The notes beneath the pieces were generated by a model. The model made no database searches and was not told the DNA's origin. It saw nothing but the letters and a program-made list of their open reading frames with translations. From assembly GCA_014925825.1 (NCBI GenBank), contig JACGCK010000007.1, positions 1 to 64,000 on the forward strand: a stretch of DNA of 64,000 nt, written 5' to 3'. Both the position numbers and the translations under genes were made by a program. Positions 40,973-50,970 of the stretch are shown piece by piece (within the stretch, counting starts at the first letter, position 1; every line of letters begins with the position of its first letter). The stretch is from Pholiota molesta. Its lineage: Eukaryota > Basidiomycota > Agaricomycetes > Agaricales > Strophariaceae.

Positions 40973-42159
40973 GGAGGGGGTGGATGGTAGGGAGGTCGAG
41001 GACGGGGTCGTTGGGATTGCAGGGTGGGCGCTGCGTCATGTGATTCGCCGTCATTGTGCTGCGTGGCATGCTCCCGGCCCGGAGTATGACGCACTCATCA
41101 GGAACGTTTGAACGTTTTGAACACCCAAGTGTGCAACCTCCACGCATGTTTGAATTTCTTCTGGGCATTATGGTGTTCGAAAACCGCAAGGCTCACTCGA
41201 CATTCGCTTGTGCGCTTCACTCAGCCGAGTCACATGCGACTTTCATCTTTCACAGCCCCGCTTTTCACCCCCCATCCATTCAATCTTTGGATTTCATAAT
41301 AATACTCTTGTTTTACTAATAATTCCATATTCTACTCTGTAGGTAGTAGTATGTTGTAAGTAGATACCTGGCAGTGCAAACCACAAAACGCTCAAGTTGT
41401 ACCATGCCGTGATGGCATCAAACCAAGTCCCAACCCAAAAAAACCAAGCCGCTCACCAATTTGAGCAGGAACCACTTGGTTATATGCTAATTTTCAGGCA
41501 AATTCGGGCGCTCGAATCCTCTACGAAAAGAAAAATGTTATAGCTTTGCGTAACGTGAGCGCACCTACTGACGATGCCGTTGCGCGACTCTGCTTACCCA
41601 CCACCTGATGCGTACGAGTGACGCGACTTCGCTCCCAAGATCCTTCCGAGGCCACGTCCCCAACGCGCATGCCCACCCCATGCCCACCCCAACTCAATGC
41701 GAGAATCTTATCTGACGCGCGCACCTGCCACCTCGGACGCCCATGCTTCTATGAAACCTGTCGCTTCACGTATCCACTGATTTCAACATGCCGTTCCACA
41801 CTCCCACGAAAGCTCACGAAAGACGATAATCACACTCCAGGAGTCCAGGTGCACTCACCCCGTTCTCCGCAAAGAGCTCGTAAGGATACAATCATTAGGC
41901 TTTTACGCGGCATTCCAAAAGCCAACCCGCTGATCAAACAGAACGCACCCTTATTCCAGCTTATTCCCCACCCCGCCTTCCCTAACGCCACCCGAAGGGC
42001 GGTCGCCTAACCACAACTAACCGACGAGATCCCCGTCGGCCTCTCGATCCCACCCCTGCCCGCGCCGCTCACTCACATAGTCGCCGCCGCTGGCGCTTAT
42101 TAAACGTTGAACACGATGTCTATCCAGAATTTGACGCGTGTGCTCACCTCACTAGAGGT
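40973..42159. other. Upstream region of the hydrolase-like gene, no gene seen
   Basis: The plus-strand frame 41618-42010 (130 codons, Pro/Arg/Thr-rich) has no domain. A segment near 42070 (CACATAGTCGCCGC) recurs near 44255 beyond the tandem repeat array. Confidence 0.35.
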
Positions 42160-49390: not shown

Positions 49391-50970
49391 TTACCGATAT
49401 TCCGCTCCGCAGTCACCTATCGACGTGATAATAGTGCGCCCGTTAGAACGGTCTAAGATGTTTTCAATGTTGGCGTTGTCACTATCAGTCAAGTGAAATC
49501 CATAGACGTGTCGGTTTTCGTCCGGATGCTCCGATATACCAAGTCGGGCTCCTAGAAAGCATGTTTAATCACAGATGCAGAACGTAACGATAGAGATGCG
49601 CACCGATGATTACTGCACCGACGAAAGGGTGGTCTAACACCCATCTAGTCGCAATATTGGAGATACTCTTGCCGTGTCGATCGCCGATTTTCCTTAAAAC
49701 CACAAGGAGGGCTTGGAAGAGTTCCCAGGATCCCCATGCCTTGACGATCATATCGAGATACTGAACGCAATGTCGGATGTTAAGCGACGACCAGAAGGAT
49801 GGGAATCACGATAATCTCACCTTCCGTTGAGAAGGCGTGAGATTTCCAGAGTATGGATCGGGTTCTGGAGATCCAAGCCACTTGTCAGCCAAGAAGCCCC
49901 CGCACTGAGGTATGATATCATTGAATGAATGGGTAAGCCGAGAATATATCAACGTTCACGCACCAGAGTTCCATATGTCAGTAGTTTGAGGCCGTGTCTC
50001 TCACAGACGTCGGACATCCCATGGAGAGGTCTGGTATCAATTAATGAGAACTACACGTGGGATAGAAGTAAACATTCGCGCGGGATGGGAGAATAGAACG
50101 TAGTAGAATTGCTACCTGGACTTGATTTGATACGATGGCTCCAGGCCCGAGCTCGGTACATATCTCGTCTGTCCTGATCGCGTCGAAATTGCAAAGCCCA
50201 ATGGCGGATATTGCACCATGAATCTTGAGGTCCAAAAGGAATTCGAGGGCGGTAATGTAACCCTTGTCCGAGTAATCCTGCCAATGAAACTAGAATAACA
50301 TTAGGACCTGAATAAATCGAAAGAGAATCTAAAAAGTTACGTACCTGCAGTAGATCGATGCGGTTGGTTCTCATACGCTCCATGCGCTCAAGAACAGCAG
50401 CTTGAACTACTGCTCTAGAAGGGTTTATGCGTTTGAAAACACACCATTTCGTTGCGCCGAGCACCTGTTCCGGGGCTGGGAGCGCTGACCGAAATTGTCC
50501 CTAAACAGCGTATCGCATCAATTGGGTGTAATAACGTCAACAGCACAGATGCAGCGTACGAAGATGATTTCTGCACTACCATAGTGATCGGCTAATTATG
50601 CACAAGTGCGCTATGTTAATCAGAGAGCAGAATCATAAGCAGTACCCTCGTGCTTACCCTAGTAATAAGATTAGAACCAGAGAGCATCAGACAACCTCTC
50701 AGCGTTGATCATTGAATACGCATGCATACCATATCTATAAAACCAAGAAGAACGATAGTGAGAATTATATGAGATGAAGAAGAGGACGTGACGAAGACAC
50801 GTACCAAATGCTGTATAACCCATCTCGACATGACGCGCCATCCCCTGACGAACCTTTCCAACAGAGGCACTTCCCCATGCATTGCTAGAGAGTTGCCATA
50901 AGCCGGTCCATATTCGTGGCACAACGAAAGGACCCAAACGGAAGGTTTCGCGATGCGAGAGAGACGACAT
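49391..50970 (-). CDS. Aldo/keto reductase, ten exons including 5-nt and 1-nt microexons
   Basis: Exons in order: 50970-50805, 50734-50730 (5 nt), 50658 (1 nt), 50591-50560, 50500-50345, 50289-50116, 50050-49964, 49904-49821, 49760-49604 and 49551-49391; 340 residues. Aldo/keto reductases reduce carbonyls with NADPH in the cytosol. Seen: GLWQLSSNAWGSAS near the N terminus; DMADHYGSAEIIF (catalytic Asp and Tyr); GATKWCVF (Lys); FHWQDYSDKGYITALEFLLD (His); SAIGLCNFDAIRTDEI; ATRWVLDHPFVGAVIIGARL (cofactor phosphate region); C terminus IGDCGAEYR. The TIM-barrel order is complete and length is usual. All large exons join in phase. The join supplying catalytic Asp-Met requires the two microexons; other explanations are given in the findings. 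Divergently transcribed from the gene at 51509. Confidence 0.88.

What the first reader, a model, noticed from the sequence alone, without database searches (positions are those of the whole stretch)
50560..50970. Aldo/keto reductase whose catalytic Asp appears to be encoded by a 5-nt plus a 1-nt microexon
Exon 1 ends in phase 1 with G (50805) and the exon beginning CCGATCACTATGG (50591) needs one preceding base. Between them lies ATATG (50734-50730) with perfect AG/GT borders, then CTAG-G-GTAAGC at 50658: a lone G between a perfect acceptor and a perfect donor. Joining G+ATATG+G+CC gives GAT ATG GCC GAT CAC TAT, the family motif DMADHYG with the catalytic Asp. The three resulting introns are 70, 71 and 66 nt; intron 2 has a CTAAT branch-like site just before its acceptor. 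Without the 1-nt exon the remaining intron would be 138 nt, unlike all others in this gene, and the frame breaks. Skipping both microexons (5+1=6 nt) keeps frame but deletes Asp-Met, giving FADHYG: a possible splice switch for activity. One-nucleotide exons are extremely rare.
Basis: partly seen in the sequence, partly recalled or inferred. Interest (0 to 1): 0.9.

Follow-up and report, generated by a model that had tools for sequence, protein, structure and literature searches.

The report
Mushroom gene with one-nucleotide exon
In a mushroom enzyme gene, the codons around the catalytic aspartate seem to be stitched together from a five-letter and a one-letter exon, which most of the related public gene models examined here miss or garble.

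Summary
The window lies on a contig (994,365 bp) whose public protein is named Pholiota molesta. An intact 340-aa aldo/keto reductase gene (50970-49391, minus) needs a 5-nt exon (ATATG, 50734-50730) and a 1-nt exon (G, 50658), which give Asp-Met and the first base of Ala in FDMADHYG. The second haplotype agrees, and the downstream frame is under purifying selection. The deposited protein skips both microexons (FADHYG), as do 76 of 140 annotated homologues listed; 31 of 31 transcript-like ones read FDMADHYG. Mis-annotated homologues that translate through introns support a 5-nt exon in six genera and a single 6-nt exon in two; a lone-G site could be read clearly in one (Laccaria). The proposed activity switch has no support. 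Nuclear one-nucleotide exons are known in plants (APC11, VPS55) and Fusarium (CYP621A), so this is a new member of a known kind, the first I found in Basidiomycota, paired with a 5-nt exon. No RNA from this species was available, so the splicing itself is inferred.

The parts
50805..50970 (-). exon 1 (166 nt), ATG to ...TTT G, phase 1
50735..50804 (-). intron 1, 70 nt, GTACGT...TTATAG
   Evidence: same borders in the second haplotype
50730..50734 (-). 5-nt exon ATATG: last two bases of the Asp56 codon and Met57
50659..50729 (-). intron 2, 71 nt, GTATGC...TACTAG, with CTAAT starting 16 nt before its end
50658..50658 (-). 1-nt exon G: first base of the Ala58 codon
50592..50657 (-). intron 3, 66 nt, GTAAGC...AATTAG
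50560..50591 (-). exon 4 (32 nt), CC GAT CAC TAT GGT..., carries Tyr61
50345..50500 (-). exon 5 (156 nt), carries Lys86 of the ATK motif
   Evidence: aligned to 1pz1
50116..50289 (-). exon 6 (174 nt), carries His122 of the FHW motif
   Evidence: aligned to 1pz1
49964..50050 (-). exon 7 (87 nt)
49821..49904 (-). exon 8 (84 nt)
49604..49760 (-). exon 9 (157 nt)
49391..49551 (-). exon 10 to the stop codon
50646..50646 (-). alternative lone G (CGAG|G|GTACTG), weaker signals; the other haplotype changes this donor to GTCCTG

Best explanation
An ordinary, working aldo/keto reductase gene of Pholiota molesta has three short introns packed around six coding bases. The U2 spliceosome, pairing splice sites across each short intron, removes introns 1, 2 and 3 in separate steps. 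Introns 2 and 3 must go one after the other, because their splice sites are one base apart; removing either leaves a normal junction for the other. The mRNA then reads G-ATATG-G-CC = Asp-Met-Ala-Asp-His-Tyr, restoring the catalytic Asp56 five residues before Tyr61. Inclusion is probably constitutive. Shown: sequence, borders, frame arithmetic, haplotype agreement, selection on the downstream frame, homologue proteins. Inferred: the splicing itself, its order, and enzyme activity.
For: Only canonical solution: 2 of 8,647 GT-AG chains (and the same 2 of 45,522 with GC donors) give the motif, both ATATG + G; one has consensus sites. Best profile score of 17 frame-keeping chains out of 87. Shuffles. 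Second haplotype identical at both microexons and all six splice borders. Between haplotypes 15 synonymous in ~236 sites against 4 non-synonymous in ~784 (Fisher p 3e-7); codon 58 onward 12/197 against 4/652 (p 1.4e-5), so the frame after the microexons is used. 31 of 31 transcript-like homologues read FDMADHYG. Gene-model arithmetic in other mushrooms: Coprinopsis cinerea (P0029) and Cyclocybe aegerita (P0022) models keep intron 1 (58 nt each) and end in Arg-Tyr-Ala, compatible with AG|ATATG joined to CC; this leaves exactly one base missing for the family motif. Laccaria bicolor (P0034) reads AGA TAT GGT (AG|ATATG|GT) and 73 nt on is compatible with YAG|G|GTRNGY, while a near-identical transcript-like protein (P0010) has DMADHYG.
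Against: No RNA from this species was available. No other fungal DNA could be fetched, so the structure elsewhere is read from proteins only. The Laccaria lone-G match alone is weak (1,650 of 20,000 shuffled peptides have one). In two other models that show ATATG|GT, the translated stretch after it has no YAG-G-GTRNGY-compatible site: Tricholomella P0037 has only a YAG-G-GTC-type site at 52 nt, Bondarzewia P0163 none at all; the models may have spliced in between, which cannot be told. Lyophyllum shimeji P0025 and Phlebia brevispora P0097 spell a single 6-nt exon (ATATGG|GT), so the lone G is not universal. A weaker lone G 12 nt downstream in this gene could be used instead.
Confidence: 0.88

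Rival explanations
1. Double skip: one 213-nt intron joins exon 1 to exon 4, giving FADHYG (338 aa), either as the only product or as a regulated inactive isoform.
For: It is the deposited protein of this locus (P0001) and the form of 76 of 140 annotated homologues, P0001 among them; the frame is kept.
Against: 31 of 31 transcript-like homologues and 40 of 140 annotated ones include Asp-Met or Asp-Ile; the skip form loses the catalytic Asp; a 213-nt intron is over three times the gene's six other introns. Caveat: the database is clustered at 90% identity, so a minor skip isoform could be hidden inside a cluster.
Confidence: 0.05
2. 5-nt exon followed by one 138-nt intron: the gene is frameshifted (92-aa product) and has lost function in this species.
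For: The donor after ATATG and the acceptor before CC are canonical.
Against: Purifying selection on the frame after codon 57 between haplotypes (12/197 against 4/652); all other exons and borders intact; a consensus acceptor-G-donor sits in the middle of the 138 nt.
Confidence: 0.03
3. A 6-nt exon in truth: a base is missing in the assembly, or the spliceosome uses a non-canonical 137-nt intron (GT-TA or TA-AG), both giving ATATGG.
For: Two homologues spell ATATGG|GT; only these two rule-breaking two-intron routes give the motif.
Against: Both haplotypes, on separate contigs with 36 differences over the 1,580-nt gene, read ATATGGTATGC; the non-canonical borders are not needed because a fully canonical route exists.
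Confidence: 0.03
4. The alternative lone G at 50646 (CGAG|G|GTACTG) is the one used; introns of 83 and 54 nt. The mRNA would be the same.
For: It gives the same protein.
Against: Non-YAG acceptor, donor off consensus, and the second haplotype turns the donor into GTCCTG while leaving the 50658 site intact.
Confidence: 0.01

Closest known systems
1-nt exon of APC11 and VPS55 in land plants (PMC4674806: abstract and discussion; PMC8831610: passages)
   Same: A one-base exon between canonical introns, missed by annotation, needed for the frame.
   Different: Plants; splicing shown there by RT-PCR and RNA-seq; in the passages read it is not next to another ultra-short exon.
1-nt exon of CYP621A in Fusarium (Nelson & Syed 2026, PMC12940212: abstract, results, discussion)
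   Same: Fungal enzyme gene; same AG-G-GT form; lone base in a conserved motif; an apparent 139-nt intron split in two (138 here).
   Different: Ascomycota; a single microexon; supported there by 18 SRA reads and 20 or more orthologous genes.
Adjacent microexons (5-nt and 12-nt) in a rice gene (PMC8831610: passage)
   Same: Two ultra-short exons in a row, one of 5 nt.
   Different: The other exon there is 12 nt.
Microexons of Phanerochaete chrysosporium P450 genes (PMC1184071: passages)
   Same: Basidiomycete enzyme genes with tiny exons and small introns; shortest exon reported 6 bp.
   Different: No 5- or 1-nt exon in the passages read.
One-nucleotide exons of mitochondrial genes (Ophiostoma rnl, PMC12308204; placozoan cox1, PMC5436844: passages)
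   Same: A single base between two introns; the Ophiostoma case is fungal.
   Different: Mitochondrial; in Ophiostoma between group II introns, not the nuclear spliceosome.
Stwintrons (PMC9024468, PMC12403724: search listing and abstract starts only)
   Same: Two introns of a fungal gene removed one after the other.
   Different: There an intron interrupts a splice element of another; here both introns have whole splice elements and a base is left in the mRNA.

Membership tests
Single-nucleotide exon | one base flanked by a canonical acceptor and donor | tested here: met
   CTAG|G|GTAAGC at 50658
Single-nucleotide exon | the base is needed for frame and conserved motif | tested here: met
Single-nucleotide exon | more than chance | tested here: met
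   9 of 20,000 shuffles for YAG-G-GTRNGY; 0 for YAG-G-GTAAGY
Single-nucleotide exon | conserved in orthologous genes | tested here: inconclusive
   second haplotype identical; one base missing in Coprinopsis and Cyclocybe models and a compatible site in Laccaria, but no consensus site in the Tricholomella and Bondarzewia stretches and a 6-nt exon in two others; no orthologous DNA available
Single-nucleotide exon | RNA reads across both junctions | not testable with these tools
   no reads of this species on hand
Stwintron | an internal intron splits the donor, branch or acceptor element of an external intron | tested here: not met
   intron 3 has an unbroken GTAAGC and TTAG, intron 2 an unbroken GTATGC and CTAG; the G between them is needed in the mRNA
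Aldo/keto reductase (PF00248) | matches the curated profile above cut-off | tested here: met
   158 bits, cut-off 24, residues 20-320, with the microexons included
Aldo/keto reductase (PF00248) | catalytic Asp-Tyr-Lys-His | tested here: met
   D56, Y61, K86, H122 align with 1pz1; that these four are the catalytic residues is recalled. Met only if the microexons are included
Aldo/keto reductase (PF00248) | NAD(P)H-dependent reductase activity | not testable with these tools

The most novel reading that the evidence does not exclude
The 5-nt + 1-nt exon pair is an old feature of this gene across mushroom-forming fungi (Agaricales, perhaps Russulales). It converts to and from a single 6-nt exon by gain or loss of one intron inside the six bases, so relatives would show the birth or death of a one-nucleotide exon. 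A large share of the public models of this enzyme lack their catalytic Asp only because gene callers cannot see these exons. (Lowered from 0.55 to 0.45 on recheck: the Tricholomella and Bondarzewia stretches show no consensus lone-G site.)
Probability: 0.45. Interest if true: 0.65.

Novelty: new member of a known kind. Interest (0 to 1): 0.55.

Why it matters
Nuclear one-nucleotide exons are in print for very few genes: two in plants and one in Fusarium among the papers found; mitochondrial cases are known too. This one would add a lineage, Basidiomycota, beside a 5-nt exon and at an active site. The same gene in relatives seems to exist with a 5-nt and with a 6-nt exon, so how such exons arise could be tested by comparing named species. 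It also shows a systematic error: 76 of the 140 annotated homologues listed drop the two residues that include the catalytic Asp.

Tried and rejected
Close paralogues: the protein search of the own genome gave 14 matches, all at two loci, the window's and C63; the wider family (103 matches to PF00248, a lower bound) was not examined gene by gene.

Origin of introns 2 and 3 by tandem duplication: local similarity 19, with 7 of 200 shuffles as high; over the six pairs compared this is not significant. Rejected as unsupported.

Splice-switch idea: no skip form among 31 transcript-like proteins. Not excluded as a minor form, because the database is clustered at 90%.

Gene models that could not be read for 5 against 6 nt: of the 15 annotated homologues in the 'longer/other' class, nine were informative (P0022, P0029, P0034, P0037, P0157, P0158, P0163 for 5 nt; P0025, P0097 for 6 nt) and six were not (P0046, P0067, P0093, P0147, P0166, P0171). 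The pattern script was given 13 proteins (12 of these 15, without P0067, P0157 and P0158, plus P0126); P0157 and P0158 were read by eye from its output and checked. P0147 could be forced to fit ATATG joined to CC and was left out as ambiguous. Of the nine models with two wrong residues, eight read F-G-x-x, as if exon 1 ran six bases into its donor; P0126 reads F-V-V-A (my reading, no DNA).

Splice-site consensus: GTRNGY fits 4 of the gene's 6 other donors; no genome-trained model was built. The chain enumerations allowed donors and acceptors only from base 121 of the gene to the end of exon 4.

Not done: structure prediction and fold search; they would not test the splicing.

Full report
What is there. 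On the minus strand, 50970-49391, lies a complete 340-aa aldo/keto reductase gene with ten exons; all nine introns are GT-AG, 52-71 nt long. PF00248 matches at 158 bits against a cut-off of 24; the closest solved sequence is General stress protein 69 (1pz1), with D56, Y61, K86 and H122 aligned (the catalytic role of these four is recalled). The window is G000:C593:1-64000; that contig is 994,365 bases long, and the database protein from a contig of that length is named Pholiota molesta (P0001; an agaric of the Strophariaceae).

The observation. Exon 1 ends TTT G, the next long exon starts CC GAT CAC TAT GG. Six bases are missing for the family motif FDMADHYG. They are supplied by ATATG at 50734-50730 and G at 50658. 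The lone G begins the Ala58 codon; the Asp56 codon is G from exon 1 plus AT from the 5-nt exon.

Is there another way? I enumerated splice chains from base 121 of the gene to the end of exon 4. With near-consensus donors, YAG acceptors, introns of at least 40 nt and up to four introns there are 87 chains, of which 17 keep the frame to the end; against a profile built from 31 transcript-like homologues the 5+1 chain scores highest (661.1 bits; 651.0 for the next; 646.3 for the double skip). With any GT-AG intron of at least 20 nt there are 8,647 chains of up to three introns and two give the motif; adding GC donors gives 45,522 chains and the same two. Both use ATATG and a lone G. The second uses G at 50646 with a CGAG acceptor and GTACTG donor, and the other haplotype turns that donor into GTCCTG. 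If the second of two introns may have any borders, only GT-TA or TA-AG routes of 137 nt remain.

Chance. Dinucleotide shuffles of the 138-nt stretch (20,000) gave a usable AGGGT in 339, YAG-G-GTRNGY in 9 and YAG-G-GTAAGY in 0. Shuffles of the 213-nt stretch (20,000) gave one 6-nt exon in 154 (4 of them coding Asp-x-Ala) and two microexons summing to 6 nt in 0. GTRNGY fits 4 of the gene's 6 other donors; no genome-trained model was used. In the window YAG-G-GTRNGY occurs twice: here and at 41023 (+), which lies inside a long open frame.

Second haplotype. The protein search found one other copy, on C63, 97.7% alike over the gene (1,544 of 1,580 bases) and probably the other nuclear haplotype. 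It has the same two microexons and the same six borders, with four substitutions in introns 1-3. A missing base is therefore unlikely. Between the copies the coding sequence has 15 synonymous and 4 non-synonymous changes (about 236 and 784 sites; Fisher p 3e-7); for codon 58 onward 12 and 4 (197 and 652 sites; p 1.4e-5). The frame after the microexons is under selection, so the cell must restore it; without the lone G the product stops at 92 residues.

Homologues. Three protein searches (each lists only the best 120 of thousands) gave 171 distinct proteins. I split them by source: 31 come only from 'jgi' or 'lgn', on contigs of 1.2 to 6.7 kb, and since a 340-aa open frame would not run through nine introns I take them as transcripts (my reading of the source labels). 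All 31 read FDMADHYG. Of the 140 others, 76 read FADHYG, 40 read FD[MI]ADHYG, 9 have two wrong residues and 15 are longer or otherwise garbled. FADHYG is what a gene caller makes if it joins the phase-1 G to CC and misses six bases. The deposited P. molesta protein is of this kind. So six hidden bases are a feature of this gene in many mushrooms, and the 'skipped isoform' is most simply an annotation error. A rare real skip form could hide inside a 90% cluster.

Five plus one, or six, elsewhere? No fungal DNA could be fetched, but garbled models translate through introns and so spell the DNA, within codon degeneracy. Coprinopsis cinerea (P0029) and Cyclocybe aegerita (P0022) models keep a 58-nt intron 1 and end in Arg-Tyr-Ala-Asp-His, compatible with AG|ATATG joined to CC. 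A 6-nt exon would not give this, because no GT would follow ATATG; and 1+5+2 bases leave exactly one base missing for the motif. Laccaria bicolor (P0034) reads Arg-Tyr-Gly-Ala, i.e. AG|ATATG|GT, and 73 nt on is compatible with YAG|G|GTRNGY; that match alone is weak (1,650 of 20,000 shuffled peptides). A transcript-like Laccaria-like protein (P0010, same first 61 and last 164 residues) has DMADHYG. Tricholomella (P0037), Bondarzewia (P0163) and two Lactarius (P0157, P0158) read Phe-Asp-Met-Val, i.e. ATATG|GT.

Results against 5+1 elsewhere. In Tricholomella the translated stretch after ATATG|GT holds no YAG-G-GTRNGY-compatible site, only YAG-G-GTC types (at 28 and 52 nt); in Bondarzewia there is none of any kind; in Lactarius the stretch is too short to tell. 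If those models did not splice in between, the distance to exon 4 would be too short for two introns. Lyophyllum shimeji (P0025) and Phlebia brevispora (P0097) read Phe-Asp-Met-Gly followed by a GTAC.. or GTAA.. donor, i.e. a single 6-nt exon.

How it works. Short fungal introns are thought to be recognised across the intron (recalled), so a tiny exon is no great obstacle; introns 2 and 3 must be removed one after the other because their splice sites are a base apart. The Arabidopsis authors argue the same for APC11 (PMC4674806, discussion read). This is inference.

Known cases. A 1-nt exon is in print for plant APC11 and VPS55 (PMC4674806, abstract and discussion; passages of PMC8831610) and for Fusarium CYP621A (PMC12940212: abstract, results and discussion read), whose authors call it the first in a fungal gene and propose that a lost base is rescued by a cryptic AGGGT. 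Mitochondrial one-base exons are reported for Ophiostoma rnl, between group II introns, and placozoan cox1 (passages). Adjacent 5-nt and 12-nt microexons are in print for rice. Basidiomycete P450 genes have exons down to 6 bp (PMC1184071, passages). I found no nuclear 1-nt exon reported in Basidiomycota in searches of the open-licence library, which lacks most subscription journals; three of the basidiomycete papers listed there mention microexons only as an aligner setting (passages), and the other listed papers were not opened for this.

Verdict. It is a new member of a known, very rare kind, with a likely wide, mis-annotated distribution of the six hidden bases, and an unsettled distribution of the lone G.

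Noticed in passing
L023 (G000:C63:46500-48900): A second copy of the gene and its upstream region, 97.7% alike over the gene, on a 108-kb contig: probably the other nuclear haplotype kept apart in the assembly.
   Followed up: yes
window 50646: A second AG-G-GT 12 nt after the first would restore the same frame with weaker signals; its donor is broken in the other haplotype.
   Followed up: yes
window 41023 (+): The only other YAG-G-GTRNGY in the window; it lies in an open frame of 154 codons and looks like chance.
   Followed up: partly
window 50344-50290 (intron 5): The two haplotypes differ in the donor (GTACGT/GTTCGT) and in the CTAAT branch-like site (CTGAG in C63), so this intron may splice less well from one haplotype.
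   Followed up: no
P0006, P0013, P0041, P0042, P0049, P0080, P0154, P0168: Eight database models with two wrong residues before DHYG (FGMA, FGTS and the like; P0126 FVVA is similar), as if the gene caller ran exon 1 six bases into its donor to fill the gap.
   Followed up: partly
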